Of a stretch of 64,000 bases of DNA, positions 22,513-57,634 are shown in pieces. The DNA lies in contig NZ_AP018207.1 of assembly GCF_002367995.1 (NCBI RefSeq), positions 4,649,083 through 4,713,082 on the forward strand, written 5' to 3'. Position 1 is the first letter of the stretch; the number at the start of each line of letters is the position of its first letter. This DNA comes from Calothrix brevissima NIES-22 (GTDB lineage Bacteria > Cyanobacteriota > Cyanobacteriia > Cyanobacteriales > Nostocaceae). The translations under genes were made by a program, and so were the position numbers. The notes below the pieces were generated by a model. It worked only from the letters and a program-made list of their open reading frames with translations, did no database searches and had not been told where the DNA came from.

Positions 22513-23595
22513 TCACCTGTGTTTGCTTTTTCTACGCAGTGCGTGAGAAGTCCCAACACGCCCGACATGGTGAATGTATTTTGCAGTTGTCGCCGGGGAA
22601 GCGTGTCCCAAATCTGCTTGCAAGTCAAAATCAGAAGCTCCATTTTTTTTAGCCAGCGTTGCGTGGGTATGGCGGAGAAAGTGGGCACTGAACTTAATTC
22701 CCGCACAAGCAGAAATTTCCTCCATCATCAGTCGCAACCCGCGATCGCTTAAAGGTTTACCCCTATCCCGCCGGCTGGGACTAGGAAACACCGGCCGATC
22801 GTTGCTGGCATCGCCACGGTAATCCAGTAGCACCGCACTAGTTTCCGGATCGAGACTAATGGTTCTAGTTTTATTTCGTTTCCCCGTCACAGTTAACAAC
22901 AGACAATCCCCATCCTCCCGAAACTGCCGCCAAAATAACCCCGGCGTAATTACGCGCTTACCATAATCAGAAGTTTGCCGGGCAATTTCTCCCGCCCTCA
23001 CCCCACTGTAAAACATGAGAGTAAACAGCAACCAGTGCATCTTATTAGTGTTGTGTTGCAAGTCTACTTCAATCGCCGCTTTTTCCAACTTAGCAATCTC
23101 GCGTTCCGAGAGAATCCGCTCTGCGAGCTTATCGTCCCACTGTATGCTTAAGTCCTTGCCCAAGTCGATAGCAAAATAACCAATAGAAGCTCTAGTACCC
23201 CACTCCCACAAACTTTTAATCGCTGCCGTGTATTTAGCCGCAGTATTTTTACTAATTCCATAAGTATTTTTCTTTCCCCGTACTGGCTTTTCATCCTTGA
23301 GCCAAGCCAGATAAGCGTGTAGGTGGAATAAAGTTACCATCCTCAAATCAGATATCCCAAACCGCGACTGCATATAATCGACAAGCTCATAACCAATTTG
23401 CCGATATGCCCGTCGCGTTTGGTCGCTTTTGATAGTGACAGAATGCACCCATAGCTCAATTAGCTGCTGTGTCGAACTAATTTTCTGGCGGTTGGGAAAA
23501 TAATAATCCACAAGCGCAACACGAGCTTCATCAAGCGGTAGAGTCACCACCTCGACAGCAAGTGATTCCACGCTTTTGACGGGTAAATTTTCCAT
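22513..23595 (-). CDS. Tyrosine recombinase (integrase)
   Basis: 360 residues from ATG at 23593-23595; an in-frame start at 23685 would add 30 residues. The N-terminal SAM-like domain (about residues 40-150) is followed by the catalytic domain with R (SGVRAGEIA), K in the beta-hairpin (TGKRNKTRT), HxLRH (SAHFLRHTHATL), H (LGHASPATTAKY) and the nucleophile Tyr in KYIHH. All expected catalytic residues are present. Enzymes of this kind resolve plasmid dimers or integrate mobile DNA. No attachment site was proven. A repeated 13-bp motif near its upstream end (23715, 23880) may be relevant. Confidence 0.88.
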   Translation of the reverse strand: MENLPVKSVESLAVEVVTLPLDEARVALVDYYFPNRQKISSTQQLIELWVHSVTIKSDQTRRAYRQIGYELVDYMQSRFGISDLRMVTLFHLHAYLAWLKDEKPVRGKKNTYGISKNTAAKYTAAIKSLWEWGTRASIGYFAIDLGKDLSIQWDDKLAERILSEREIAKLEKAAIEVDLQHNTNKMHWLLFTLMFYSGVRAGEIARQTSDYGKRVITPGLFWRQFREDGDCLLLTVTGKRNKTRTISLDPETSAVLLDYRGDASNDRPVFPSPSRRDRGKPLSDRGLRLMMEEISACAGIKFSAHFLRHTHATLAKKNGASDFDLQADLGHASPATTAKYIHHVGRVGTSHALRRKSKHR

Positions 23596-23714
23596 AATAA
23601 AATTCCCCAACCCCCACTGATAATTATGATGCCGAGAACCGTAATTCCCGGTATCTTTATGATAGTTGTTTCCCAAGCACCACAAAATTACTCATCGAAA
23701 ATAATCTATATCGT

Positions 23715-29680: not shown

Positions 29681-31135
29681 TTAGCTGGAAATTCCTGAGA
29701 AGAGTTGGAATGTTTTAGAGTATTGACCATTGGATACCCATGCGTAGCAAGTGACTGGTGCTGTAGCGTCCAAGCGATGTCCCAGAAACAGAGCAAGATG
29801 AGCAGGTCCAGCAAAAAATAAATGAATTTCTTTACTACCTAGGGACACTAAGGTATTGACAATTAATTTTTTAATGCTTCCAACAGCATTGTTGGCATGT
29901 TGTGGGGAAGTAATAGGATGCTCTCCTCTAATGTGAAGCAGTGGCTCACCTGTGAGTCCATACTTCTCCAGATTGACTTCGACTTCAGGAATAATATCTC
30001 GAAGAATACCTATGCTAACAACCAAGCGGGTTCCTGTTCCGCCTATCATCTGATGAGCCAAAGGATAAACGGGGGTTTCTTGAGTGGGATGAGCATCTGT
30101 TGCCCATACCTCTTCACGGTATTCCATTTCAATTGCGTAGCCCCTAACAGATGAGAAGACAGATCCTATTGCAAGACATGCTGCCAGACGACGATTGCCA
30201 GCAAGCCTGATTCGCTTAGTATTTCTATACTTTTCAATCCAGCTTCGAGTATCCTGTAGTTCAATGAGTAAGCGATTCCACTGTTGGGATGGGGCAATCG
30301 CACGAGTTTCACCACCAGAAAAAGGGGCCCAATCGAAACACAATCCATGATGCTCTGGGTTATTTTCAGAGGCAATGGCTGTGTAAATCAGGATGGTACT
30401 AAGGGCTGGTAGTTGACTGGGAGGAATTTTTTCTCGCAGTTTTGTCTCTAACTCTTTGCGGGTAATAATTTGATTCTTGCGCTGTCGTATAAATGTGCCT
30501 AAGTGATTATAAATATTATCAAAAGTTTTAAAAGATAAGTCTTCATATTCACTCAAATTCTCAGCCAAAGACTGCTTAAAAAGAGCTTCGCCATGAGATT
30601 TTGCAGTGTTCCAATCTGCCTCCACTATCACCCTTTCAAAAATGAAAAAGGCATCTTGTTCAGTGCCGCCAATTTTTTTGACTAGGCGGGTATACTCTTT
30701 GAAAGAATTTTCTTTGACTGTAGAGTTTTCTTCATAAAAATCTTGAGGATTACGAACGCGGCGTAACCCATTTACCAAAGGCTCTAAGTCTCTGGAAACT
30801 CCTGCTGCTACAAGTATAAACTGCTGATAGGTGTTTGGACTACCAGCATCTACTTCTCGGAACCGTTGAATTTCATTTAAAAACTTGGATGGTTGGAGTG
30901 TATGGTCTTTAACTTCAAGAAACTCTATCGCAAACCCACGACCAGGAACAAAAAACTTTGCCTCTACATCTCCAATCCCTTCTCGGATCATAGCTGTGAA
31001 GCCATCTTGTGCTAGCCAAGCAGGGACACGAGCAAGCATGACTTGCTCCTGAAAGGAAAAGCCACCTTCAGCAATATCACCACCACGAGACTGTGGTTCT
31101 AGAAGTGAGGGAGTCAAATGTTCGCTCTCTGTCAT
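29681..31135 (-). CDS. cap4: Cap4-type CBASS effector (DUF4297 nuclease plus SAVED domain)
   Basis: 484 residues. The N-terminal DUF4297 nuclease has GFSFQEQVMLAR, then GIGDVEAKFF with D56 and FLEVKDH with E74 and K76, the PD-(D/E)XK triad. The C-terminal SAVED domain (about residues 290-480) ends with KEIHLFFAGPAHLALFLGHRL and the following strands of the fold. In characterised Cap4 proteins the SAVED domain binds the nucleotide second messenger made by the CD-NTase and switches on DNA degradation, killing the infected cell. It is the last gene of the CD-NTase-E2-Cap4 operon, 8 bp after the E2 gene. All core residues appear intact. Confidence 0.9.
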   Translation of the reverse strand: MTESEHLTPSLLEPQSRGGDIAEGGFSFQEQVMLARVPAWLAQDGFTAMIREGIGDVEAKFFVPGRGFAIEFLEVKDHTLQPSKFLNEIQRFREVDAGSPNTYQQFILVAAGVSRDLEPLVNGLRRVRNPQDFYEENSTVKENSFKEYTRLVKKIGGTEQDAFFIFERVIVEADWNTAKSHGEALFKQSLAENLSEYEDLSFKTFDNIYNHLGTFIRQRKNQIITRKELETKLREKIPPSQLPALSTILIYTAIASENNPEHHGLCFDWAPFSGGETRAIAPSQQWNRLLIELQDTRSWIEKYRNTKRIRLAGNRRLAACLAIGSVFSSVRGYAIEMEYREEVWATDAHPTQETPVYPLAHQMIGGTGTRLVVSIGILRDIIPEVEVNLEKYGLTGEPLLHIRGEHPITSPQHANNAVGSIKKLIVNTLVSLGSKEIHLFFAGPAHLALFLGHRLDATAPVTCYAWVSNGQYSKTFQLFSGISS

Positions 31136-31143
31136 GCAGTTTG

Positions 31144-31641
31144 CTACTCAATCGGTTTTTCTACAATAGAGTACCCTTCAACAGGATTGGAACTCCAACT
31201 TTGGAGTTTTGAATCTGAGGCGTGTGAAGATGGGCCAAGCCATTTTCCTGTATCTAGCCACAATTCATAGTAATATAACCATAATGCAGTCCACGGAATG
31301 ATAGTCTCTGCAAGCAGCATATCTTTCTGCCACTGTTTTTCTTTGGGGTAGTAGAGGCATAAAGTTCCGTCTTTCCAAACATGGGGAGGTCGTGGTGCTA
31401 AAGTCGGAGATATGACATTAACGGTTGGGTAAGAACTGAGTTTGTAGCGGATTGCTACTCGGTATTTTGGCGAGAACTGACGCGGTTGAAGTGTTCCTCG
31501 CCATACAGCTGCCCCACGCTCTCGCCTGTAAACGAACCCAGGGAATCGGTGCAGTATGTGCAGGTTTTGTAGCCCCAGGTTGATAGTGGGTTTCAGTTGA
31601 GAATATTCAGCCTTGGTCAATCCCATGAAACTTGGTTGCAA
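31144..31641 (-). CDS. E2-like protein of a short type II CBASS
   Basis: 165 residues. HVWKDGTLCLYYPKEKQW holds the presumed catalytic C95 in the bacterial E2 motif (H-x-x-x-D-G-x-L-C-L), and IIPWTALWLYYYELWLDTGKW is the helix that follows it in this family. There is no E1 or JAB domain. In short type II systems the E2-like protein alone acts on the CD-NTase C-terminus to control its activity. Its start lies inside the end of the CD-NTase gene (35-bp overlap in another frame), so the two are translationally linked. Distinct from the cysteine-free E2 encoded at 36226-36606. Confidence 0.85.
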   Translation of the reverse strand: MQPSFMGLTKAEYSQLKPTINLGLQNLHILHRFPGFVYRRERGAAVWRGTLQPRQFSPKYRVAIRYKLSSYPTVNVISPTLAPRPPHVWKDGTLCLYYPKEKQWQKDMLLAETIIPWTALWLYYYELWLDTGKWLGPSSHASDSKLQSWSSNPVEGYSIVEKPIE

Positions 31642-32695
31642 TGGTTGAAGTGTATAAACCAGAAGCAGGTTGGCTGGGCAGAATTAAACCAGTAGAGCTG
31701 ACGTAAGATTTGCCAGGTAAACCCACTTTAGCCAATTGAGACGCAGCGGTTTCTACCTCTGATGGAAAATATTCTTCTCCAAAGATTTTTTGCCAGTATT
31801 TAATTGCCTTCTCCCGATCATCAGTCTCTAAAGCTTTATCTGCCCAATTTCGTCCCTCATTAATCCGTCTCATGAAAGTTTCAAAGTGGGTGCGGCTCCA
31901 GTTCCAAGAGATGTTATGACCAAGGATCGGATCGGGGAGGTTTGGGGTTGCAACATTGCTGGTATGTAGCAGGTGATCGTATTGGCGGTAAATAGCATTC
32001 AAAAGCTCGTAAAATAGGACTGCCAATGGCTGTGTCATATCTAAAGTGTTCTGTTGGATGTGATAAACCAGCAGAGCACCAAGCCAGTAACTCTTGGGTT
32101 TGCGGCTTTTCATTTGGCAGTCACGAAAGTGCTTCAGAAGCTTGCCAAGTGGTTTAACTTTGCGATCGTGTTTTTCCTGTAGCTCATTGAGTAAGTTGAG
32201 ATACCCGATGGGGTGCGATGCAATCCACTTATTGAATCCTCGATCTGGAACGTAAAGCACACTCTCGAATCCATCTGGTGCAATGCAAGGAACAAAGTCT
32301 AGGTGGAAGTCTTTGCCTTTGAAGTAGACATGGACGGATCGGCGGGCACGCTCTACCTCTATTTCCGCTTCTGCATATCCCTCAAAGCCCAAAGCTTTTG
32401 GCAAGGCATCAAGCAACTTTTTCATGTCTTGAATTAATCGTTTAGCCTCTGGTTCATTTGCCTTTGGATCACCAGGGACACGTATTAGGGTATCTACGTC
32501 TTTAACATCACCTACTGCCATTTTTTGGGCGTATGAGCCTGCAAGTCGAGAGTGAGGGTAGACAGTGGGAAAATCTTTGCTTTTGGCAATGTACTCACGG
32601 ACTAAGGGTGGCAAATCGCGTGCTGCATCAAGGCGTTCTTGGGGTGGTTGAATGTTCTTGAGCAGTTCTTCAAAGTGTGTGATAAGCGGAAACAT
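31607..32695 (-). CDS. cdnD: CD-NTase (CBASS nucleotidyltransferase)
   Basis: 362 residues. The polymerase-beta-like core has LAGSYAQKM (G53-S54) and DVKDVDTLI with metal-binding D66 and D68, and the third acidic residue D133 is in FHLDFVPC. A helical C-terminal domain follows. These enzymes make cyclic di- or trinucleotides on phage infection. The clade letter is a guess from its association with Cap4 and an E2-like protein, so the symbol is tentative; the product nucleotide cannot be read. ATG at 32695. First gene of the three-gene operon; upstream is a 417-bp gap and then an IS630 element. Confidence 0.88.
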   Translation of the reverse strand: MFPLITHFEELLKNIQPPQERLDAARDLPPLVREYIAKSKDFPTVYPHSRLAGSYAQKMAVGDVKDVDTLIRVPGDPKANEPEAKRLIQDMKKLLDALPKALGFEGYAEAEIEVERARRSVHVYFKGKDFHLDFVPCIAPDGFESVLYVPDRGFNKWIASHPIGYLNLLNELQEKHDRKVKPLGKLLKHFRDCQMKSRKPKSYWLGALLVYHIQQNTLDMTQPLAVLFYELLNAIYRQYDHLLHTSNVATPNLPDPILGHNISWNWSRTHFETFMRRINEGRNWADKALETDDREKAIKYWQKIFGEEYFPSEVETAASQLAKVGLPGKSYVSSTGLILPSQPASGLYTSTIATKFHGIDQG

Positions 32696-33112: not shown

Positions 33113-33141
33113 TAGTCTGTCAATTTTGAATTGAAGGGTAA
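33113..33141. repeat. IS630 left terminal inverted repeat
   Basis: Pairs with 34367-34395 with a few mismatches. Begins with the TA target and TAGTCTGT. The transposase stop codon (33120-33122) lies inside it. Confidence 0.75.
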
Positions 33142-34315
33142 AGACGCTTAAGTTTTATCCGAGCATCGTTGGTGGTAAATCGCCAATCTACAGTGTGGGC
33201 TTCTCGATTTCTGACTTCTTCCCAAGCAGCGATTTCTTGAATTAAAGCTTCTTTGTCAGGAATTCTGCGGTCAAGACATTGACGAGTTAAAACACTCAGT
33301 TCAATTTCAGCCATATTTAACCCTTCGGGTTCGCCAGTCGCTACAACGGGGGGAACCCCCGCAACGCGCTGGCTCACCAACTGCCATGTTTAGGAGTGTA
33401 GTGAAACTCTAATTTATCTAAAATCCGTTTAGCCTCAGTCGGGTCAAAAGCCTTGTAGAGAGATGCTTTGGCATGGGTGTTGAGTTGGTCATGCACTACG
33501 GTAATCTTAGTGGCATCCGGATATCGTTCATCGACTAAGTATTTCATTTGATGGGCATAGTCAACGGCAGTACGCCGCTGCGTTACCTCTACGTGCCGCC
33601 AAGCACCTAATGGCTCGAAAAACATGAATAAGTTACAGACCCCATTACGTTCATATTGGTAGTCATATCGCTGTTGTTTTCCTGGTTCGGCAGGTATTGG
33701 TTCAATTTTTTCTGCGATTAGTTGCTTACTGGTTTCATCAAAACAAACAAACGGATGATTTGGGTCATAGGGACGAGTGTACACATCTAAGACATCTTCC
33801 ATACAACAGACAAATTCTGCATTGCCTTGGGGAGGAATTACCCACGATTTACTTAACCACGGCTTGAGTTCGTTTTTTTTAGGGTTTGACGCACGGTTTC
33901 ATGAGATATTTTTTCTACATAACCTAATTCCACCATTTGCTGTGCCAGCATTCGCATTGTCCAATGCCCCTGTCCCATTGGTGGTTCACTACAAGTTAAA
34001 GCAATTAGATGAGCTTCCTGGCTCCCATCTAAACAACGTGGCTTGCGGTTATTTTGCAGCTTTCGGCTTAACGCGCCCTCTAGTCCCTGCTCCACTAAAC
34101 GCTGTCTGACTCGTTCAATCGTGGCAACGCTAATATTTAATGCTTGGCTGATGGCCTCATCCTTCCCACCTCCTTGTTCCCGGTTGGTGTCTGCCAAAAG
34201 CATAATCCTTGCATGGTTCACTTTGTAGGCCGCAGCTTTTCCTTTTTTTAGTCAACTCTTCTAGTTGCGCTCGCTCTTCGACTGTCAAGCTGACAATGTA
34301 CTTTTTCTTCGGCAT
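33120..34315 (-). pseudogene. IS630-family transposase, disrupted in three places
   Basis: The original start is ATG 34313-34315 (MPKKKYIVSLTVEERAQLEEL). Frame breaks: a run of seven A (34243-34249 on the minus strand) with one base too many; a run of eight A (33873-33880) where a -1 slip would join LKK to NELKPWL; and a 56-bp insertion at 33322-33377. The pieces carry an HTH (EAISQALNISVATIERVRQR) and all three catalytic acids: D in VCFDETSK, D in VVHDQLNTH and E in NMAEIEL. The A-run at 33873 may be a genuine programmed frameshift as in other IS630 elements; the other two lesions inactivate it. Confidence 0.82.
33322..33377. repeat. 56-bp small dispersed repeat inserted in the transposase
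   Basis: The sequence splits the transposase cleanly between the codons of HYTPKHGSW and LNMAEIELSV. It starts CCCTTCGGGTTCGCCAGTCG and contains GGGGGGAACCCCC. Rejoining the flanks restores a normal IS630 reading frame exactly. Its GC-rich wording matches small dispersed repeats found across Nostoc-like genomes, so this is an insertion of such an element rather than a deletion scar. Confidence 0.75.
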
Positions 34316-34366
34316 CAGTGCTTAGTGTTTTCTGGGGCTATTACTTTTAGATTATTTTCCCTGATT

Positions 34367-34395
34367 TTATCCTTCAATTCAAACTTTACAGACTA
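34367..34395. repeat. IS630 right terminal inverted repeat
   Basis: Reads inward (minus strand) as TAGTCTGTAAAGTTTGAATT; only about three mismatches separate it from the left end over the first 25 bases. Lies about 40 bp from the stop of the DUF6527 gene. Confidence 0.75.
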
Positions 34396-34438: not shown

Positions 34439-34798
34439 TTATTTCTGTCCTGAATCAGCACACCATTCAACAACTCCCTGACGCACCCAAAAGTGGCAGT
34501 GGCATTCATTAAGCTGCCTAACAGAAGGATTAAGTGTTGGTCGTCCCAACGAATCAATGGCGATCGCCCAGCAAGGATGCCGCTTTTGATTCAAAGACAG
34601 CAAAATATTTTCACCACATCCTCCAGGGCAACGAAAACAAGCCCATTTCTGATATTCAGCATCACCAACGACTAAAATCTCCCCTGGTTTTATATTCTTA
34701 GGTGCAGGATGTGTTGGAACTATCCGTGCTGATAAGTCTGGCTGACGAATAAAACGCAGCCAGATTAATAACTGTCTAACTACACCGCGAAGAAACAT
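34439..34798 (-). CDS. DUF6527-family Cys/His-rich protein of the ubiquitin-like operon
   Basis: 119 residues with cysteines at 54, 57, 61, 76, 99, 101 and 113 and histidines at 74, 100 and 102, arranged as CFRCPGGC, HPCW and CHCH, typical of zinc-binding treble-clef or RING-like folds. DUF6527 proteins recur next to multi-ubiquitin, E2 and JAB-E1 genes in prokaryotes; no activity is established as far as I know. As the last gene of this operon, 3 bp after the JAB-E1 gene, it could supply a substrate adaptor or E3-like function, which is inference. An IS630 element starts just past its stop. Confidence 0.75.
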   Translation of the reverse strand: MFLRGVVRQLLIWLRFIRQPDLSARIVPTHPAPKNIKPGEILVVGDAEYQKWACFRCPGGCGENILLSLNQKRHPCWAIAIDSLGRPTLNPSVRQLNECHCHFWVRQGVVEWCADSGQK

Positions 34799-34801
34799 CC
34801 C

Positions 34802-36229
34802 TTACTCCACCAGATTAAGGAAAGCCATAACATCCCCTCTGCCCCACCACTGGGCACCGGCTGTCCCGCAAACTGGGCAATTGGGATTAGGGATTGCTGC
34901 TGGTTTACGGTCAGTCGTCAGATGGAATTTACGAACCCTGTGAGCTGCTGCACCATCCTCACCACGGAAACCCTGAAGGCGGTGGACAAGTTCCTGCATC
35001 GCCATAATTGCTACCTCCGTTGTAAATAAAACAACGGCAGGGCTGGGGTTTCCTTCTCCAATAACGTAGGCTTCTGCCTTGCGGCGTTCGTACTCATCAG
35101 GATTACTGCGTTTCAACGCTTCATCCCTTGCAGCAACAGGATTTATAACTTCACGACACAATAGACAGGTGTGTCCTGGTGCAGGTGCAAGCACCGTGAC
35201 GCGACCATCCAAAGCCTGAAAATTGGGCGTTTCCCTTTGAGAAACCTCAATTGCTAAACCCATATCAAATACAGGTGTTGCATAGTAGTAGGCAAACCTA
35301 TTCAGCATTAGGCGACCCGTATGATCATCAGTACAACAAAAAATTACGTCGCACGCTTTCAGGGGATCGCGGCAGTCTGCTTCTCCAATCCAAGCTTGAT
35401 ATGTTCTCACTTGAACACCAAGTCCAAGTTCCATAAGTGACTTGGCAACAACTTCAACTTTGGGACTCATAGCATCAGCATCTGGCTGACGCGCACCGTG
35501 TAGCCGATTTAAATTTGTATCCTCAACAATGTCTTTATCGAAAAGTGCAATGTTCCGAATACCCATCTTTGGCAGCAACATAGCGATCGCACTTCCTGTA
35601 CCGCCGCAACCAATGACCCCAACACGCAACATTGATAAGTCTTGATTAAGGGCTTCCCCAAAAGCTAAAGCCTGTCGCTGGAATGCTGGACGAGAAACCC
35701 CCAGCCCCCGGTTTGGATAATACAAACGGATTTTCTGCCCAATCACACGAATCATCCGCAAGGAGATAACTTCTTGCGAACTAACCCACAGGCGACCAAT
35801 CAAATTTCCATCCGGCATTAGGATAACACTCAAAATCTGTGTATCTGAGCCGTTGCGGTTTTGTGCCAGTTGAATCAAGTCTGGTTCGTTAGTATCATCT
35901 TGAATAGAGAATTCTCTCAAGCCTTCTCGATGACTGTGGAAAATGGCTAGTGTCAGGTTTTTCGCTTGTGCTGCTTGCAATGCCCGAACAAAAGAATCCG
36001 TTTTCCAGGTAATGTGTTTGGCAGAGAAAGAAACAATTTCATCCTCTGGCACTGGTATTACTTCATAAGAAATGAATTTTTGGTGCGGCTGCCCATCCCA
36101 AGGGTCGGCATTGATAACGGCCTGTCCACACAAGACATAGGCTGCTCGCTCTTTACCATCTATGGTTAATAGCAATTCGTGCAGGTAATTTGAGTGTTGC
36201 TCTTGCAATGTCAAGCTTACAGTATTCAA
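34802..36229 (-). CDS. JAB protease - E1 (ThiF-like) fusion
   Basis: 475 residues. The N-terminal JAB/MPN domain (about 1-160) has the JAMM zinc motif HSHREGLREFSIQD with H98, H100 and D111, so it should cleave a C-terminal tail or isopeptide bond. The C-terminal E1-like domain begins with the Rossmann motif GVIGCGGTGSA (around 207-213), then IALFDKDIVEDTNLNR for adenylation. CxxC pairs (CLLC and CPVC near residues 355 and 450) probably bind zinc. Such fusions both mature and activate a ubiquitin-like protein. The start overlaps the E2 stop by 4 bp (ATGA). Its substrate is presumably the tandem-Ubl protein at the head of the operon. Confidence 0.9.
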   Translation of the reverse strand: MNTVSLTLQEQHSNYLHELLLTIDGKERAAYVLCGQAVINADPWDGQPHQKFISYEVIPVPEDEIVSFSAKHITWKTDSFVRALQAAQAKNLTLAIFHSHREGLREFSIQDDTNEPDLIQLAQNRNGSDTQILSVILMPDGNLIGRLWVSSQEVISLRMIRVIGQKIRLYYPNRGLGVSRPAFQRQALAFGEALNQDLSMLRVGVIGCGGTGSAIAMLLPKMGIRNIALFDKDIVEDTNLNRLHGARQPDADAMSPKVEVVAKSLMELGLGVQVRTYQAWIGEADCRDPLKACDVIFCCTDDHTGRLMLNRFAYYYATPVFDMGLAIEVSQRETPNFQALDGRVTVLAPAPGHTCLLCREVINPVAARDEALKRSNPDEYERRKAEAYVIGEGNPSPAVVLFTTEVAIMAMQELVHRLQGFRGEDGAAAHRVRKFHLTTDRKPAAIPNPNCPVCGTAGAQWWGRGDVMAFLNLVE

Positions 36230-36606
36230 GCAGCCACCTCCAGAGCATTTTCAATCCGTTTGAGCATTGTCCATATGCCATCTGTACCAGGTCGCCACTC
36301 GTTATTATGTCTCGACCATCGCTGCCATTTCTGACCATTAAATTGGTGTGGTTGATCGGCTGCCTTTGGGTATTTTGCACCTTGTACCAGCTTTACCCAC
36401 GGCAGCAGGTAAAACATATCGGGGGGTGCATCTGGGTATCCGCTCGGCAAGAGAATTAAGATATCTGCCTGTTCAGTATCAAAACGGCCAAGTGGTAACT
36501 GAAATTCGCGTAAAATAACGCCCTTTTGACTGGCATCTACCACTTCTTCAAAAGGTAAACCCCTGTTTTCCAGGTATTGGCGATCGTTTGAGGGTAAAAA
36601 GCTCAT
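36226..36606 (-). CDS. Prokaryotic E2-like protein (family E), no cysteine
   Basis: 126 residues. LPSGYPDAPPDMFYLLPWV is the E2 core (strand, PxxYP-like turn), and WQRWSRHNNEWRPGTDGIWTML is the hallmark end of prokaryotic E2 family E. There is not a single cysteine in the protein, so it cannot form a thioester in the usual way. Family members are described as lacking, or having a displaced, active-site cysteine. A His in RWSRHNN is a candidate substitute or the protein may be a scaffold. It lies between the Ubl gene (3 bp) and the JAB-E1 gene (4-bp overlap), in a tightly coupled operon. Confidence 0.85.
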   Translation of the reverse strand: MSFLPSNDRQYLENRGLPFEEVVDASQKGVILREFQLPLGRFDTEQADILILLPSGYPDAPPDMFYLLPWVKLVQGAKYPKAADQPHQFNGQKWQRWSRHNNEWRPGTDGIWTMLKRIENALEVAA

Positions 36607-36609
36607 TAC

Positions 36610-37134
36610 TTAACCCTCCGTTGTAGTCTTTTTACCAGTGAAGAATCGCTCGACTCCTGGTGCTTGTAAATCGACAGACTCGTTATCGGCAATTGGGCGG
36701 TCTTCTGCACCACGTAGTTCAAGCCAAACTCCATAGGATGCAAGGTCAACGCCAGCAAGTTCCTTCAGCTTTAACCCTGTGATAATTGGCGCTCCCCATT
36801 CAAATCGCCGACCGTCGATGACAAAACGGAAGGAGCGATCGCTGCGCCAAGTAATGAATCGCTCGATACCAGGCTTTCTGAGTTCAACGGTTTCATCAAG
36901 GCGGATTTCTTCTAACTGACCGTTGTTTAGCACTTGGAAGATAAGGTACTCATCCACAGGTCTCTTGCTTGCTTCATCAAGCAGCTGCCCTCCCGTAATC
37001 ACGGGGTCGTCTACTTTGTAACTTCGGTCATCAATCCGCACTAAGTAGTGTTTTGCAAGAGGTGGTTGTACAGCCCCGTGCTGCTTGACCCACGCTTCCA
37101 GTTCAATCTGCTCAACCACGATATTGTTCGTCAT
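36610..37134 (-). CDS. Multi-ubiquitin (tandem beta-grasp) protein
   Basis: 174 residues. Two homologous beta-grasp units: residues 29-94 (YLVRIDDRSYKVDDPVITGG ... ELRKPGIERFITW) and 101-166 (FRFVIDGRRFEWGAPIITGL ... DLQAPGVERFFTG). Both contain a V/IDxRxxxxxxPxITG start and a PGxERF end, the marks of multiubiquitin-domain proteins. The chain ends KKTTTEG, so the last residue is Gly, as needed for conjugation without further trimming. It heads the operon whose other genes encode E2, JAB-E1 and DUF6527. The JAB could still separate the two units or remove conjugates. Confidence 0.9.
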   Translation of the reverse strand: MTNNIVVEQIELEAWVKQHGAVQPPLAKHYLVRIDDRSYKVDDPVITGGQLLDEASKRPVDEYLIFQVLNNGQLEEIRLDETVELRKPGIERFITWRSDRSFRFVIDGRRFEWGAPIITGLKLKELAGVDLASYGVWLELRGAEDRPIADNESVDLQAPGVERFFTGKKTTTEG

Positions 37135-37159
37135 ATTGTTGTTGCATAAGTGACTTTTG

Positions 37160-37175
37160 ATTTCACTTGTGAAAT
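37160..37175. promoter_or_regulatory. Palindromic operator between the Ubl operon and the XRE gene
   Basis: ATTTCACTTGTGAAAT is a perfect 7-bp inverted repeat with a 2-nt spacer. It lies 26 bp upstream of the tandem-Ubl start, and a further GTGAAAT half-site lies at 37217-37223, just ahead of the XRE start. This placement fits control of both divergent promoters by the XRE protein. Confidence 0.6.
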
Positions 37176-37232
37176 TTTATCCATTATATTGCACACATGA
37201 TTTAAAATTGCAAGAGTGAAATTGGAGATGAA

Positions 37233-37589
37233 ATGGCAAAAGGACAGTTTGATGTTGAAGCTTTTTATGCAGCATTGGACAGCCAACGGCTGTCTAAGCG
37301 TATGACATGGAAACAAGTTGCCGAAAAATCTGGTGTTAGTGCGTCTACCTTGACTCGGATCGCGCAAGGTAGACGACCAGATGTAGACAGTATGGCGGCT
37401 TTGTTAACATGGTCTGGGCTGAACGCAGACTCCTTCATCAAGCGCGAACAGGATACTCTAACCGAATCCGAACCACTCGCTAAAATTACGGCGTATTTGC
37501 GTGCAGATCCCCATTTAACGCCAGAAGCTGCATCTGCAATGGAAGCTGTCATCAAAGCTGCTTACGAGAAACTTCGCAAGGATCAATGA
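37233..37589 (+). CDS. XRE-family HTH regulator
   Basis: 118 residues. The Cro/CI-type HTH is at residues 24-50 (MTWKQVAEKSGVSASTLTRI, then AQGRRPD). The C-terminal part is helical. The start ATG 37233 has GGAG five bases ahead. It is followed 41 bp later by an ImmA/IrrE-type metalloprotease and is divergent from the ubiquitin-like operon. XRE plus ImmA/IrrE pairs typically act as a repressor and a protease that removes it on a DNA-damage or phage signal, as in ICEBs1. The palindrome at 37160 is its likely site. Confidence 0.88.
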   Translation: MAKGQFDVEAFYAALDSQRLSKRMTWKQVAEKSGVSASTLTRIAQGRRPDVDSMAALLTWSGLNADSFIKREQDTLTESEPLAKITAYLRADPHLTPEAASAMEAVIKAAYEKLRKDQ

Positions 37590-37596
37590 GATGACA

Positions 37597-37690
37597 TTAC
37601 GCTGTGGTTTTAGTCAGGAGGCAAATGCTTATGCCAGGTAAGGCGAAGTTCCGTCGTGGCTTTAAGAAGGAGGCAAGTGCTTATGCCAGG
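37597..37690 (+). repeat. 42-bp imperfect duplication around the protease start, with leader peptide
   Basis: 37597-37638 and 37649-37690 match at 34 of 42 positions, 52 bp apart. Copy 1 is the end of a small frame from ATG 37591 (MTLRCGFSQEANAYAR, stop at 37639-37641). Copy 2 encodes the equivalent residues of the protease (FRRGFKKEASAYAR). Copy 1 also contains AGGAGG, which now serves as the protease ribosome-binding site. Because 52 is not a multiple of three, the two copies are in different frames. Confidence 0.6.
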
Positions 37691-38194
37691 GAGTTTCGAG
37701 CAGAGCTTGGTCTAAAACCACACGCTCCCTTATGCCCTTGGCAGCTTGCTGAACATTTAGCAATTCCTATTGTTCCACTGTCGGAATTTCAAAATGAAAT
37801 TTCTGAAGAGGTTCGCTATTTTACAGAAAAAGACATAAAAAGTTTTTCTGCGATAACAGTGTTTTATGGTATACAAAGAATAATTGTTCACAATGACGCT
37901 CACAGCCGTCTACGTCAGGCTTCTAATGTTTCTCACGAAATAAGTCATGGTATCCTTCAACACCAGCCAGATGAAGTTTTTAACGAATGCGGATGCCGGA
38001 ATTTTAACCAAGAATATGAAGATGAAGCAAACTGGTTAGGTCCGGCACTTTTAATTTCAGAAGAAGCTGCCCTCCATATCGTTCAAACTGGAATGACAAT
38101 AGATGAGGCTGTTGAATATTACCGCGCTAGCAAGGAAGTTATCAATATGCGTATTAATGTTACTGGAGCGCGAAAACGAATTTTATCTCGTTAG
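37631..38194 (+). CDS. ImmA/IrrE-family zinc metalloprotease
   Basis: 187 residues from ATG 37631, chosen because AGGAGG lies nine bases ahead; earlier in-frame starts at 37604 (GTG) and 37625 are possible. The zinc-binding HExxH is VSHEISHGI, followed by the COG2856-type downstream region DEANWLGPALLIS, which supplies the third ligand (Glu in EDEANW). Proteins of this family cleave XRE-type repressors. It is the partner of the upstream XRE gene and so probably controls the divergent ubiquitin-like operon. An internal duplication reshaped its 5' end. Confidence 0.88.
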   Translation: MPGKAKFRRGFKKEASAYAREFRAELGLKPHAPLCPWQLAEHLAIPIVPLSEFQNEISEEVRYFTEKDIKSFSAITVFYGIQRIIVHNDAHSRLRQASNVSHEISHGILQHQPDEVFNECGCRNFNQEYEDEANWLGPALLISEEAALHIVQTGMTIDEAVEYYRASKEVINMRINVTGARKRILSR

Positions 38195-44254: not shown

Positions 44255-47200
44255 GTGACTGACATTGTAACTGGACAGATTGTGCGCGTGCGCTCGCGGC
44301 AATATCTTGTAGAAGAAGTTGTGTCGAAACCGTCTCCAGAGCAAGACACAAAAGTTAGCCTTTCTTGTTTAGAAGATGATGCGTTAGGAGAATCGCTAGA
44401 AGTCCTATGGGAACGGGAAATAGATGCCAAAATCGTAGGGGCGACATCATGGGATTCCATAGCGAATCGAGGTTTTGATAATCCGCGTCTGTTTTCTGCC
44501 TACCTGCACACATTACGGTGGAATTGTGTAACCTCCACAGATGCCAAGCTTTTTCAAGCGCCTTACCGAGCCGGTATAGAAGTCAAAGCTTATCAATTAG
44601 AGCCGCTACGTAAAGCTTTGCTGATGCCGAGAGTCGGTTTGTTCATTGCTGACGATGTAGGGCTGGGCAAGACAATTGAAGCAGGGCTGATACTACGTGA
44701 GATGTTGATGCGGCAGAAAGTTAGGCGAGTCGTTATCTCGTGTCCGCCATCAGTGGTAAGGCAGTGGCAAGAGGAAATGGAGAGTCGCTTTGGACTCACA
44801 TTCATGATTCTAGATCGTGAGTTTATTGCTGCCCGTCGTCAAGAACGAGGTTACGGAATTAACCCTTGGATGACGCACACCCGGTTCATTATTTCCCACG
44901 CTTTGCTACGAGATGAAACCTATGCCGCACCGTTACGGGACTGGCTTGGAGATTTTGCGGCTGCTTCCATGCTCATCCTTGACGAAGCTCATAATGCTGC
45001 ACCTGCGAGTGGGGCGAAATATGCTGTGGATTCACAGTTAACACGCACTGTTCGAGATTTAGCACCACGTTTTGAACACAAGCTGTTTTTGTCTGCCACT
45101 CCTCACAATGGACATTCCAACAGCTTCGCCGCCTTGCTAGAAATCCTCGATCCCCAGCGTTTCTGCCGAGGAGTACCCGTTCGTAATCGCAAGTTGCTGG
45201 ACACTGTAATGGTGCGGCGCTTAAAGCAAGATTTACGAGAAATCGGAGAAGAGTTTCCCCAACGCTACGTTCTTCCTATAGTTATTGATAACCTGCCAGA
45301 AGACGCGCCCGAACTCAAATTATCCCGATTGCTGCAACAATATCGCAATCTGCGTGAGGAAAAGCTCAAAGATGCAGCGAAGTCTACCCAGACTACGGCG
45401 ATGTTAGTAATCACTTCACTACAAAAGCGTCTTTTGTCTTCCATTGAGGCATTTGCTCGGACTTTAAAGGTGCATCGGACGGGGATGGAAAAGCAAGCAG
45501 TTAACCGTTCTTCCATACATCAAGCCAGTCTCCCGTTGCTGTTTGAATCCCCTGGTGCTGATGACGAACGGGCTGAATTTTCTGAAGAGGAAGTACAAGC
45601 AGAAGAAGATGCTCAAATGGCAGCAGCTAGTATGCAAGCTGCCGGACAAACAGCCCGTGAATTAGCGATTTTAGATGAAATGGCAGATGTAGCTAATTCC
45701 TCTCGCTACCAGCCAGATCCGCGGATTCAACAACTGGTGGAGTGGATTCGCCAAAATCTTTGTCCTGATTTGGGTCAACCGAATGCTGCTTGGTTAGAAC
45801 GACGAGTAATTATCTTTACAGAATATACAGATACTAAACGTTATTTACAACAGCAATTACAAAGTGCGATCGCTGGCTCTAACCACGAACATGAACGCAT
45901 AGATGTATTTCACGGGGGCATTGGAGAAGAACGCCGCGAAGCTATTAAAAGTGCATTTAACGCTGACCCAGCACGTCATCCCCTGCGAATTCTGATTGCT
46001 ACAGATGCAGCACGGGAGGGAGTGAATCTGCAAAACAACTGTGCTGACTTGTTCCACTTTGATGTGCCGTGGAACCCGTCGAGGATGGAACAGCGCAATG
46101 GACGGATTGACCGCAAATTACAGCGATCGCCTGTTGTCCATTGTTACTACTTTGTTTTACCGCAACGCACAGAAGACAAAGTATTAGATGTACTGGTGCG
46201 GAAAACAGCCACGATTCAACAAGAACTTGGCAGCCTTGCACCAGTGGTTGAAAGAAATGTGTCGCGCTTACTGGCTAATGGGATTCGCCACCAAGAAGTA
46301 AATAATCTTGCCGATTCGATTAATAAAGCAGAACAACTCAATAACAAGGAAACAGTAAACACACAGGTAATTAATGAGGAACTGGAGCAAGCCAGACTCC
46401 GCCAACAGGATTTGACTAAACAAGTCGAGAATTTACAAGAAATGTTGAAAGACTCGCGGGATTGGTTGGGACTAGATGACAATCACTTCCGTAATGCCAT
46501 CTCTGCTTCTTTAGAAATTCTGGGAGTCTCAACACTTGCCCCTGTAGATGTGAATGAGGTTGCTAACAATCCTGTAACTGCGCGTTGGACAATTCCGGCT
46601 CTCGATCAGCGTACTGGTGCAGATCCAACATGGTCAACTACACTTGATACTCTAAGAACACCTCGAAAAATCGGACAAAAGCCTTGGGAATGGCGAAAAG
46701 AAGCACCGATTCGTCCTGTAGTCTTTCGAGATCCTGGTTCTTTAGATGGGGATGTAGTTCATCTGCATTTAGAACACAGAATTGTCCAGCGTTTACTGAG
46801 TAGGTTTTTAGCTCAGGGTTTTCTGCATGATGAATTAACTCGTGCTTGTGTTTGTCTGACTAATGACCCCATGCCAAAAGTGATTGCACTGGGACGGCTG
46901 GCTCTGTATGGTGAAAGGGCTTCTCGCTTGCACGACCAGGTGATTGCAGTAGCAGCAGAGTGGTCAGACCCAAGCAGTCGGGGACGCAAGAAACTTCAGC
47001 CTTTAAGAGAAGGCGAGAAAGACAACGTACTGGAATTACTGGAAAATTCCCTAGCTTCCCCACACTTGCTGCAAGTTGGCGAAGCGGTTAAAGAGCGATT
47101 GAAAAAAAGTGCTGCCCAAGATGTAGCAGAATTAATTCCCTATCTGGAACGCCGTGCCACAGCTTTGGCAGAAAGTGCTGAGAAAAAGCTGGCTAACCGG

Positions 47201-47476
47201 GGTATTAAAGAAGCTGCTGAGATGAAGAAGATTCTGGAAGAACAACAGACGCTAATTCTCAAGTGTCAAGAAGAATCTAAAGTAGTGCAGTTGTCTCTTC
47301 CATTCATAGAAGAACAGCGTCAATTGGATGCAGATCGTCGCCATTGGGAAAAACGCCTTCAAGCGATCGCAACCGAACTAATTTCAGAACCAGCCCGGAT
47401 TGAAGCCGCCTACAAAGTAAAAGCAGTGCGAGTTGAGCCAGTCGGCGTAATTTATTTATGGCCGATTTCCGGCTAG
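44255..47476 (+). CDS. drmD: DISARM SNF2-type helicase DrmD
   Basis: 1073 residues, starting at GTG 44255 with AAGGGGG about 10 bp ahead. Helicase core: DDVGLGKT Walker A (133-140), DEAH at 243-246 in LILDEAHNAAP, and motifs V and VI in the second lobe (TDAAREGVNLQ and RMEQRNGRIDRK). The C-terminal third contains a coiled coil. DrmD is the SNF2-family member specific to class 1 DISARM, an antiphage system that recognises incoming unmethylated DNA. First gene of the operon, 14 bp before drmMI. Confidence 0.93.
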   Translation: MTDIVTGQIVRVRSRQYLVEEVVSKPSPEQDTKVSLSCLEDDALGESLEVLWEREIDAKIVGATSWDSIANRGFDNPRLFSAYLHTLRWNCVTSTDAKLFQAPYRAGIEVKAYQLEPLRKALLMPRVGLFIADDVGLGKTIEAGLILREMLMRQKVRRVVISCPPSVVRQWQEEMESRFGLTFMILDREFIAARRQERGYGINPWMTHTRFIISHALLRDETYAAPLRDWLGDFAAASMLILDEAHNAAPASGAKYAVDSQLTRTVRDLAPRFEHKLFLSATPHNGHSNSFAALLEILDPQRFCRGVPVRNRKLLDTVMVRRLKQDLREIGEEFPQRYVLPIVIDNLPEDAPELKLSRLLQQYRNLREEKLKDAAKSTQTTAMLVITSLQKRLLSSIEAFARTLKVHRTGMEKQAVNRSSIHQASLPLLFESPGADDERAEFSEEEVQAEEDAQMAAASMQAAGQTARELAILDEMADVANSSRYQPDPRIQQLVEWIRQNLCPDLGQPNAAWLERRVIIFTEYTDTKRYLQQQLQSAIAGSNHEHERIDVFHGGIGEERREAIKSAFNADPARHPLRILIATDAAREGVNLQNNCADLFHFDVPWNPSRMEQRNGRIDRKLQRSPVVHCYYFVLPQRTEDKVLDVLVRKTATIQQELGSLAPVVERNVSRLLANGIRHQEVNNLADSINKAEQLNNKETVNTQVINEELEQARLRQQDLTKQVENLQEMLKDSRDWLGLDDNHFRNAISASLEILGVSTLAPVDVNEVANNPVTARWTIPALDQRTGADPTWSTTLDTLRTPRKIGQKPWEWRKEAPIRPVVFRDPGSLDGDVVHLHLEHRIVQRLLSRFLAQGFLHDELTRACVCLTNDPMPKVIALGRLALYGERASRLHDQVIAVAAEWSDPSSRGRKKLQPLREGEKDNVLELLENSLASPHLLQVGEAVKERLKKSAAQDVAELIPYLERRATALAESAEKKLANRGIKEAAEMKKILEEQQTLILKCQEESKVVQLSLPFIEEQRQLDADRRHWEKRLQAIATELISEPARIEAAYKVKAVRVEPVGVIYLWPISG

Positions 47477-47490
47477 AGGGAGTATAAACA

Positions 47491-50400
47491 ATGGCAAACG
47501 ATCCAGAAATTCGGTTACATAAAGAATGGTTGGGCTTTCTCCAGCCGGTGGGGTTGGTGGTGTCTCCGCCTGCATTGTCAGCAGCCCAAGCTGTAGTTAA
47601 CCGCAATGTGGTAGAACTGCAACAAACACTCGCTACAGTTGCTAGACGTGAAACCCTCTCTGGTGACATAGGCAAGGAAACCTTTGGAATTGACGACTTT
47701 CCTGCTTTCACTATCAACGTTTTAGGTTGGCAACCAGAAGATTTAGTTGTCAGTCCAGAAGAATTAGCGATCGCACTCCTAGATTACAACGAAGTTTTGA
47801 CACCCACATATGCTGTACCCGACCCTAATGGCAACTGGATGATGCTGGTACAGGTGCTTCCTGATGGTACTGAACTTGACAATGCCGGCGCAGAGGATAG
47901 TAAATCTACTGGTTGGCACGCTAGCCCCCAATCTAAGTTTGAGCGCCTTTTGAAAGAAACGAAAGTTTACACTGGGCTATTGTGCAACGGTACAGAATTG
48001 CGTTTGGTTTATGCACCACTTGGGGAGTCATCGGGACACCTGACTTTTCCTGTGCAGGCAATGTGTGAGGTATCTGGGCGGCTGATTTTGGGTGCAATGG
48101 AGATGTTGCTCTCGGCTGATCGACTGTTTAATGTCCCTAGCGATCGCCGTTTGTCTGCAATCCTAGAAAAAAGCCGTAAATATCAAAACGATGTCTCTAT
48201 AAAGCTAGCAGAGCAGGTATTAGAGGCATTATGGGATTTACTGCGCGGCTTCCAAATCGCAGATGCAACCAGTAAAAGCCGCTTAGTGAGTGACATCGCT
48301 ACCACTGCACCGCAGCATATTTACGGGGGACTGATTACTATTTTGCTGCGGTTGGTGTTCCTGCTTTACGCTGAAGACCGGGGACTGATGTCTCAAGATG
48401 CAGTTTATACACGCTATTACTCAGTTAGTGGACTTTACGAGCGCTTGAGAGAAGATGCAGGCAACTACCCGGATACAATGGATCAGAGGTATGGTGCTTG
48501 GGCATGGTTGCTGAGTCTGTTCCGTTTGGTTTACGATGGCGGCGGTCACGCTGATTTGTACTTACCTGCTCGTCATGGGCAACTATTTAACCCAGATGAG
48601 TATCCGTTTTTAGAAGGTCGTCCCCAGTATACAGAATATCAAACAGGGGAAAGTCTTGAACCCCCTCGCGTTTCAGATGGGGTAATTCACCGGGTATTGC
48701 AAGGGTTGCTGATACTGGATGGAGAACGTCTGTCTTACCGTTCTCTAGACGTTGAGCAAATTGGTTCCGTTTATCAAGCGATTATGGGCTACGAAGTAGA
48801 AAGAGCAAGTAGTCCTGCTATCGGTGTTTGGAGTAAACCCAAAGGTTCTAAATCTTCGGTAACAGTTGTTGTCAGCGTTGAGGAAGTTCTCAAAACTAAG
48901 GTGGGAGAACGGGCTAAATATTTAAAGGATGTTGCAGGTTGCGAAATTACTGGTAAATCCCTAACTGAGTTAAAGGATGCGAGGACACTAGAGGATGTAG
49001 TGGCGGCTTTAGGACGCAAGGTATCACCGAAAACGCCGAGTTTAATGCCTGTGGGTTCTCTGTATTTGCAACCGGGGGAAGAACTGCGGCGGAGTGGTTC
49101 TCATTATACGCCTCGTGCTTTGACTGAGCCGATTGTTAAAGAAACTCTCAGACCAATTTTATCGGCTTTGGGAGAAAACCCCACACCTGAGCAGATTTTA
49201 GAGTTGAAAGTTTGTGATTTGGCGATGGGTTCGGGCGCATTCCTGGCCGAAAGTTGTCGTCAGTTGGCTGAAAAATTAGTTGAAGCGTGGAATAAGCAAA
49301 ACGTATTACCTGAAATTCCAATTGATGAAGAACCGTTACTTTATGCGCGGCGGTTAGTGGCGCAACGGTGTTTGTATGGTGTGGATAAAAACCCTTTTGC
49401 GGTGAATTTGGCTAAGTTATCTCTGTGGTTAGCGACTTTAGCGAAATCTCATCCTTTTACTTTTTTAGACCATGCTTTGAAGTGGGGAGATTCTTTAGTT
49501 GGGTTGACTTCTGAACAAATTAAAACGTTTACATGGGATGAAGACAAGACTTATAAAGACCCAAACTTACCTTTGTTTAATCTATCAATGGAGAAAGCGA
49601 AGTTTTATCGCAATGGAATTCACAATTTGGATGAAGATGATTATGCAGCCAAGCGCGATTTTTACGAAAATATAGAAACAGAGTTGGGGGATATTCGGCT
49701 GAAAGGGGATTTGGTTATTGCTTCATTTTTCGCTAAGGATAAGGATAAGGCGAGAAAGGATGAGCGTGATAATTCATGGTTGAAATTTTATCAATGGCAG
49801 AAAAATCAGGAAGATGATTTAGATGTTAGGCGAATTTGTGCAGAATTGCGGTATGGGGAGAAACCAGTTCCGGCGTTTAATTGGGAGATTGAATTTCCAG
49901 AAGTATTTGATAGAGAAAATCCGGGGTTTGATGCGATTGTTGGTAATCCGCCATTTGCAGGTAAGAATACAACAATAAATGCTCATGCTTCTGGTTATCA
50001 GGATTGGTTGAAAGTTGTTAATCCCGAATCTCATGGGAATGCTGATTTGGTAGCGCATTTTTTCCGACGAGCGTTTAGCCTCTTACGCCAGTCTGGATGT
50101 TTTGGATTGATTGCTACAAATACCATTGCCCAAGGTGACACTCGCAGCACTGGTTTGAGATATATCTGTGAGCAGGGCGGTACGATTTACAATGCTCAAA
50201 AGCGGATGAAGTGGCCAGGTTTAGCGGCGGTTGTCGTGAGTGTTATTCATGTTTTTAAAGGGAAATATGAAAATAGAAAATTTCTAGATGGACGAGAGGT
50301 TAATTTCATTTCTGCGTTTTTATTTCATGCAGGAGGCAATGAAAATCCCAAGGTGTTGCTGGCGAATGCTGAGAAAAGCTTTCAGGGTAGTATCGTATTA

Positions 50401-51468: not shown

Positions 51469-51512
51469 ACAGGTTCAACGTCAGTTATGCCAATGGATTC
51501 CCAGAGAATATT

Positions 51513-57627: not shown

Positions 57628-57634
57628 TTATTTT

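What the first reader, a model, noticed from the sequence alone, without database searches (positions are those of the whole stretch)
34439..37134. Compact prokaryotic ubiquitin-like operon with a tandem-Ubl protein, cysteine-free E2, JAB-E1 and a Cys-rich protein
Four tightly coupled genes form a self-sufficient conjugation and deconjugation set. The Ubl has two beta-grasp units and ends in a single Gly. The E2 has no cysteine at all, so transfer cannot use a normal E2 thioester. The DUF6527 protein has the Cys/His layout of a zinc-binding treble clef, a candidate substrate-selecting factor. Related operons are known from comparative genomics, but the chemistry and target of this multi-ubiquitin type are, as far as I know, poorly described.
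Basis: partly seen in the sequence, partly recalled or inferred. Interest (0 to 1): 0.8.

Follow-up and report, generated by a model that had tools for sequence, protein, structure and literature searches.

The report
Cyanobacterial Bub ubiquitin-like operon (known type)
This is a compact bacterial gene set that very probably attaches a ubiquitin-like tag to proteins without the usual cysteine chemistry; it is a good cyanobacterial example of a system already described, and its fourth protein (DUF6527) remains the real puzzle.

Summary
The four genes are real: tandem-Ubl protein (Multi_ubiq), cysteine-free E2 (Prok-E2_E), JAB-ThiF fusion and DUF6527, coupled by 3-base gaps or a 4-base overlap. 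The operon type is known. Iyer, Burroughs and Aravind described it in 2006 as row 6e, with the cysteine-less E2, the JAB-E1 fusion and a putative treble-clef metal-binding protein. It is now called Bub: the window BubB and BubCD match solved Citrobacter Bub proteins, and the BubB model superposes on Citrobacter BubB (TM 0.91). Best mechanism: the E1 adenylates BubA Gly174, and transfer follows through non-thioester intermediates; the oxyester chemistry is recalled from a paper I could not open. Added here, from 88 loci: an invariant QRWSRH block and no conserved cysteine in the E2; three BubA maturation states (already ending in Gly 37, short tail 24, fused to E2 25, undetermined 2); DUF6527 in 83 of 88; and no treble clef in the DUF6527 model. 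CapH/CapP-like genes lie divergently upstream, in a CBASS-DISARM defence island. The target, the role of DUF6527 and phage protection are open.

The parts
36610..37134 (-). bubA: two beta-grasp (Multi_ubiq) domains, 174 aa, ends ...TTTEG; Gly174 codon 36613-36615 is the predicted conjugating residue
   Evidence: Pfam Multi_ubiq 2e-49; matches solved multi-Ubl proteins 9cd2 3.4e-36, 9d5b, 8u38, 9d59; Gly aligned in mature, tailed and fused relatives
36226..36606 (-). bubB: cysteine-free E2-fold protein, 126 aa; invariant QRWSRH block at residues 95-100 (36307-36324)
   Evidence: Prok-E2_E 6.7e-57; Citrobacter BubB 3.3e-13; AF2 model TM 0.91 to 9eae_C
34802..36229 (-). bubCD: JAB domain (E27, H98, H100, S108, D111) fused to E1-like ThiF domain, TTG start
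   Evidence: ThiF 3.1e-40, Prok-JAB 5.1e-6; Citrobacter BubCD 4.6e-36; residues
34439..34798 (-). DUF6527 protein (the name bubE would be my inference from position), 119 aa; C57, C61, C99, H102 as probable metal ligands, S92 near-invariant
   Evidence: PF20137 2.1e-23; alignment counts; AF2 pLDDT 90
37135..37232 (.). 98-base divergent promoter region with inverted repeats (ATTTCAC-AA-GTGAAAT; TTGCA...TGCAA by eye), possible operator of the HTH protein
   Evidence: the motif TTGCAATTTTAA recurs in L009 and L010; not tested against chance
37233..37589 (+). HTH_3 regulator, CapH-like by domain and position
   Evidence: Pfam HTH_3 1.1e-7; no PDB sequence match at 0.01
37604..38194 (+). M78/IrrE-like metallopeptidase with HEISH motif, CapP-like by domain and position
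   Evidence: Pfam Peptidase_M78 1.3e-17; motif; no PDB sequence match at 0.01
33113..34394 (.). insertion sequence between Bub and CBASS; not part of the system
   Evidence: absent from L008, L017, L020 and L024, whose alignments break there; DDE_3 in 33374-33802
29681..32695 (-). neighbouring CBASS module: CD-NTase, cysteine-bearing E2, Cap4 SAVED nuclease; a separate system

Best explanation
A Bub (row 6e) protein-conjugation operon. BubD, the ThiF half of BubCD, uses ATP to adenylate the C-terminal Gly174 of BubA. BubA is encoded already ending in that Gly, so unlike relatives with a tail or a BubA-BubB fusion it needs no cleavage. BubB docks on BubCD and, having no cysteine, passes BubA on through a non-thioester route; the likeliest acceptor is the hydroxyl of Ser98 in its invariant QRWSRH block, with His100 as helper. 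The JAB half removes BubA from targets and, in tailed or fused relatives, also matures it. DUF6527 is a core partner, probably a zinc-stabilised all-beta protein that acts on or with the E1/Ubl complex. The operon is probably held off by the divergent HTH (CapH-like) repressor and released by the M78 (CapP-like) protease on DNA damage, as an anti-phage or stress module. Shown here: genes, homology, conserved residues, context. Inferred: every chemical step, the Ser98 assignment, regulation, and purpose.
For: Family matches for all four genes. Solved Citrobacter BubB and BubCD are sequence relatives, and the BubB model is the Citrobacter BubB fold, TM 0.91, rmsd 1.2. In C. freundii pOZ181 the BubA-BubB gene is fused, and aligned to it the PDB Citrobacter constructs are cut at G229|E230, the place of window Gly174. 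In 88 loci the Gly is followed by a stop (37), a short tail (24) or the E2 (25), 2 undetermined (L012 counted as fused by hand). E2: Q95-H100 each 88/88, no column with Cys in more than 25/88, 31 of 88 with no Cys in the aligned stretch. E1: no Cys in the crossover loop of the rows printed; conserved Cys are C299 and the CxxC...CxxC ligands. Of hydroxyl residues conserved at 95% or more and shared by Citrobacter, only S134 and Y388 lie outside the JAB motif and the ATP loop. JAB residues EHHSD are complete in 84 of 88; the two rows with real loss, L072 and L082, both encode BubA already ending in Gly. HTH and M78 upstream on the opposite strand in 25 of 65 loci that hold at least 4.4 kb upstream. 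EMBO J 2026 (passages): 219 of 544 Bub operons have CapW or CapH+CapP, both of which act on DNA damage.
Against: No step of the chemistry can be tested here. Profile alignment to human UBE2D3 matched only the YPxxPP stretch, at a probability of 0.5%, so the residue in the old cysteine position is not established. The oxyester chemistry is recalled from the abstract of Ye et al. 2026, which the library does not hold. Iyer et al. 2006 judged this E2 inactive. The EMBO J passage says Bub operons have not been shown to protect against phage. The HTH and M78 proteins have no solved relative at E 0.01, so CapH/CapP identity rests on domains and position; 40 of 65 loci lack the divergent pair at my thresholds. 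The window E1 keeps a four-Cys metal site that Citrobacter lacks, so the Citrobacter results may not carry over fully.
Confidence: 0.7

Rival explanations
1. BubB is a catalytically dead RWD-like E2 that only holds BubA or the E1; BubA passes straight from the E1 adenylate to a lysine of the target or of the complex.
For: No cysteine; Iyer et al. 2006 classed these as inactive E2/RWD-like and suggested that they bind Ub moieties. No cysteine nucleophile of the usual kind in the E1 crossover loop. RWD and UEV domains are among the fold matches, but only at E above 1, as for canonical E2s at E above 0.1.
Against: A six-residue block with Ser and His invariant in 88 of 88 and, for Ser98 and His100, kept in Citrobacter is more than a scaffold seems to need. 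Published Bub work reports E2 function through oxyesters (recalled abstract, not read).
Confidence: 0.2
2. The Bub E1 hands BubA to the cysteine-bearing E2 of the adjacent CBASS module.
For: A Cys-bearing E2 with no E1 seen beside it lies on the same strand beyond the IS; the two modules lie together also in L008, L020 and L024.
Against: Relatives of the CBASS trio are near only 4 of 88 Bub loci (short flanks, close relatives only), while all 88 have their own BubB. The CBASS E2 has its own CD-NTase partner.
Confidence: 0.03
3. A sulfur-carrier or cofactor pathway (ThiS/MoaD-like) rather than protein conjugation.
For: ThiF-type E1 with a four-Cys metal site, as in MoeB/ThiF (recalled).
Against: Tandem Ubl, JAB protease, E2-fold partner, single Gly rather than Gly-Gly, defence-island and plasmid setting.
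Confidence: 0.03

Closest known systems
Citrobacter Bub (solved BubA, BubB, BubCD: 9ea4, 9ea5, 9ea8, 9eae, 9eav; Ye et al. 2026, not read)
   Same: BubA, BubB, JAB-E1 fusion and DUF6527 in the same order (C. freundii pOZ181, a relative of the solved proteins); BubB fold TM 0.91; Ser98, His100 and Y388 shared
   Different: pOZ181 fuses BubA to BubB; its E1 lacks the four-Cys site; the two genes upstream are annotated hypothetical and winged-HTH, which I read as CapK/CapS-like
Row 6e polyUbl operons of Iyer, Burroughs and Aravind 2006
   Same: Every component, Cyanobacteria among the listed lineages, polyUbl-E2 fusion in some species and a C-x3-C motif (passages). They name sll6052 of Synechocystis; plasmids of PCC 6803 hold a copy at 60% E2 identity, the same size as a record named pSYSX
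   Different: They wrote H-x2-C at the second half of the motif; here it reads C99-x2-H102, after C57-x3-C61. They suggested perhaps a treble clef; the model does not show one
Bil (BilABCD)
   Same: Two-domain Ubl, E2, JAB and E1 in one operon (review passages); the solved 8u38 Ubl-BilA matches BubA
   Different: BilB has a catalytic Cys138 and BilD a catalytic Cys417; neither has a counterpart here, and the JAB is a separate protein there
Multi_ubiq + DUF6791-ThiF + DUF6527 operons (by my reading, domain X of Iyer 2006)
   Same: Ubl, E1 and DUF6527, with C57, C61, S92, C99 and H102 kept by eye
   Different: DUF6791 in place of JAB, no Prok-E2_E gene seen beside them, Ubl ends T-x-x-S instead of Gly in 5 of 5

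Membership tests
Bub / row 6e | Multi_ubiq Ubl | tested here: met
   two domains, 2e-49
Bub / row 6e | E2/RWD-fold protein without catalytic Cys | tested here: met
   Prok-E2_E 6.7e-57; no Cys; model TM 0.91 to Citrobacter BubB
Bub / row 6e | JAB fused to E1-like ThiF, metal ligands intact | tested here: met
   HxHx10D at 98, 100, 111 and E27
Bub / row 6e | metal-binding DUF6527 protein after the E1 | tested here: met
   ligand pattern by sequence; the metal itself was not testable
Bub / row 6e | CapW, CapH+CapP or CapK+CapS beside the operon (common, not universal) | tested here: inconclusive
   HTH_3 and M78 divergently upstream; no PDB sequence match
Bub / row 6e | conjugation through oxyesters (recalled) | not testable with these tools
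   biochemistry
Bil | E2 with catalytic Cys | tested here: not met
   BubB has no Cys
Bil | E1 with a catalytic Cys domain | tested here: not met
   no Cys in the crossover loop
RING / treble-clef E3 (for DUF6527) | zinc knuckle, beta-hairpin and following alpha-helix (definition recalled) | tested here: not met
   model pLDDT 90; only helix of 4 or more residues is 2-13, a 3-residue turn at 33-35, strands after; no PDB fold match, best E 0.99

The most novel reading that the evidence does not exclude
DUF6527 is not a substrate selector but a catalytic partner of the E1: an acyl-transferase or hydrolase of BubA built on near-invariant C57, S92 and H102. In the 11 sequences that lack both other putative ligands (C61 and C99), C57 stays in 10 and S92 and H102 in all 11. 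DUF6527 serves two different Ubl-E1 systems and also occurs in phage-like gene clusters, where it might act against the conjugates.
Probability: 0.12. Interest if true: 0.65.

Novelty: new member of a known kind. Interest (0 to 1): 0.32.

Why it matters
Cysteine-free conjugation breaks the textbook rule that ubiquitin-like tags travel as thioesters. This copy is a clean test bed: BubA is already mature, and a relative sits on a plasmid of the laboratory cyanobacterium Synechocystis PCC 6803. What is still open is the target, whether the operon protects against phage, and what DUF6527 does; it was found in 83 of 88 loci, four of the five misses being contig ends, and neither sequence nor fold searches found a solved relative in the PDB copies at hand.

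Tried and rejected
Treble clef/RING for DUF6527: rejected on the model. Viral-library fold matches exist (A0A8E7FZU2, 3.1e-7; A0A7S5UXZ9, 1.7e-4) but carry no name. DUF6527 as the maturation protease alone: not supported, since it is also present where BubA needs no maturation; its presence in JAB-less DUF6791 operons keeps a hydrolase role possible.

Locating the cysteine-equivalent residue by hhalign: a first attempt failed on a file-format error, the second aligned only the YPxxPP stretch of UBE2D3 and six residues of the CBASS E2. In one search the CBASS E2 did align its Cys to the catalytic Cys of UBE2D3, at a probability of 0.4%. Other E2 genes in the own genome: PF14461, PF00179 and PF14457 gave nothing, but no control rang either; the CBASS E2 itself scored in no Pfam family, so such searches could miss its kind.

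My first Ubl profile was built from an alignment that held fused E2s and so hit E2s as well; I replaced it by a Ubl-only query. My first count of HTH+M78 neighbours (46 of 88; 36 of 65) took any position and strand; upstream and opposite-strand only, it is 35 of 88 and 25 of 65.

Literature: several searches returned unrelated papers. The three key Bub/Bil papers were not held, so Ye et al. 2026, Gong et al. 2025 and Chambers et al. 2024 are cited from reference lists and recall only. For PMC13373217, PMC1779556, PMC11354881 and PMC12687455 I saw passages found by term, not the whole text. Promoter-like sites were no more frequent than in shuffles and terminator-like ones fewer.
Full report
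WHAT IS THERE. Four minus-strand genes at 34439-37134 are as reported. Families: Multi_ubiq twice, Prok-E2_E, Prok-JAB plus ThiF, DUF6527. Spacings are 3, -4 and 3 bases. BubA ends KTTTEG; BubB has no Cys. The own genome (9.26 Mb, 9 contigs) gave one match for the E2 family, one for DUF6527 and two for Multi_ubiq, which are the two domains of this gene.

SPREAD. Of 386 genomes of the window's phylum, 7 matched Prok-E2_E: the window over its whole length, and 6 others over about a third of the profile, 3 of them over the family cut-off. Among plasmids 99 records match the E2; among phage records none. The GTDB scan found 417 relatives, of which the best 80 were kept. Nostoc sp. C052 carries the same island (M78, HTH, Bub, CBASS) on a plasmid typed conjugative. 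In a quick tree of 84 BubCD rows longer than 350 residues the window's nearest rows are L008, L017 and L016; long branches (L013, L014) make parts of that tree unsure.

CONSERVATION, 88 LOCI (window, 7 plasmids that I picked, the 80 nearest contigs). E2 and BubCD in 88 of 88; Ubl by a Ubl-only query in 86; DUF6527 in 83. Four misses run into a contig end (L053, L054, L071, L075; lengths); in the fifth, L077, BubCD ends early in other sequence. Of the 83, the DUF6527 core is whole in 79 (not in L015, L016, L020, L056). E2: Y57, D63, M64, P69, Q95 to H100, W104 and D109 in 88 of 88; Cys in at most 25 of 88 rows at any column. E1: C355, C358, C451 and C454 all present in 79 of 88, gaps included; JAB residues complete in 84 of 88. 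The exceptions are L022 (E to K), L053 (truncated) and L072 and L082 (active site gone). These last two encode mature BubA, which fits a JAB role in maturation; two rows from one genus are weak evidence.

BUBA MATURATION. The Gly is followed by a stop in 37, a short tail in 24 and the E2 in 25 of 88, with 2 undetermined. I set L012 to fused by hand: its E2 frame carries the end of a Ubl, and the rest lies beyond an IS66 transposase. On the tree the fused state needs at least 9 changes, of which starred branches force 5. Aligned to the fused gene of pOZ181, the PDB Citrobacter constructs are cut at the same Gly. So the window BubA needs no processing, and its JAB, still intact, most likely serves to remove BubA from targets (inference).

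DUF6527. C57 80/81, H102 82/82, S92 81/82, C113 76/82. C61 and C99 are both present in 68 sequences, both absent in 11 and never single, of 79 with letters at both. Ten of those 11 have mature BubA; the eleventh, L013, is undetermined. On the BubCD tree the loss takes 3 changes, or 2 without L013 and L014, so the 11 are few events, not 11. The pattern suggests a C57-C61-C99-H102 metal site. In relatives from DUF6791 operons and Citrobacter these four and S92 remain by eye while C113 does not. The model is confident (pLDDT 90), one N-terminal helix and eight strands, with no PDB fold match. DUF6527 also follows DUF6791-ThiF genes and occurs in clusters that I judge phage-like by their gene content (L110, L111). 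Matches in phage records are weak: Burkholderia phage FLC9 4e-4 and, beside terminase genes, Thiobacimonas phage vB_ThpS-P1 8e-3.

E2 FOLD. The model (pLDDT 91.6) matches Citrobacter BubB (E 1.1e-8, TM 0.91); canonical E2s follow with E above 0.1 and TM mostly 0.3-0.5. QRWSRH spans the end of a strand (92-97) and the loop before the last helix (111-125). This is roughly where the catalytic Cys lies in canonical E2s (recalled), but could not confirm it.

SURROUNDINGS. HTH and M78 genes face away from the operon across 98 bases with inverted repeats. Such a pair, upstream and on the opposite strand, is found in 35 of 88 loci, or 25 of the 65 with at least 4.4 kb upstream. To the left an IS of about 1.28 kb separates Bub from CBASS; L008, L017, L020 and L024 lack it. 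To the right lie DISARM genes drmD, drmMI, drmA, drmB and a GmrSD-type gene. Context favours defence; it does not prove it.

AGAINST WHAT IS KNOWN. Iyer et al. 2006 give the same gene set, the cysteine-less E2, another domain in place of JAB in some species, polyUbl-E2 fusions, mobility, and the Zn-protein guess (passages). The EMBO J 2026 passages name Bub, count 544 operons and say phage protection is not shown. A 2025 review passage also lists Bub operons as complete Ubl cascades. From recall only: Ye et al. 2026 report conjugation through oxyesters and a serine protease in type II operons. Verdict: a well-preserved cyanobacterial member of a known kind.

Noticed in passing
window 44255-56830: DISARM genes drmD, drmMI, drmA, drmB, followed by a GmrSD_N gene at 57560-59479 and a DEAD/UvrD helicase at 60028-63594; the window is a defence island.
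   Followed up: partly
window 29681-32695: CBASS with CD-NTase, E2 and Cap4 SAVED nuclease; no E1 or JAB of its own seen beside it.
   Followed up: partly
window 33113-34394: Insertion sequence between Bub and CBASS, with a DDE_3 frame at 33374-33802 and a second frame at 33853-34221; absent from L008, L017, L020 and L024.
   Followed up: yes
L015 5357-6142; L016 3384-4700: Two Nostoc copies in which one open frame runs from BubCD into the end of DUF6527, as if by deletion: decaying operons.
   Followed up: partly
L012 2229-5378: A Pseudomonas koreensis plasmid copy whose Ubl is split by an IS66 transposase.
   Followed up: no
L107, L108, L118, L119, L120: Ubl proteins of DUF6791-ThiF operons end in T-x-x-S rather than Gly in 5 of 5, so their conjugating residue is unclear.
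   Followed up: no
L110 5851-6192; L111 3042-3410: DUF6527-family genes inside phage-like clusters, matching phrog_15183 and phrog_3362 of unknown function.
   Followed up: partly
window 22513-23685: Tyrosine integrase gene (Phage_integrase 1.7e-15) left of the island, a possible mobility gene.
   Followed up: no
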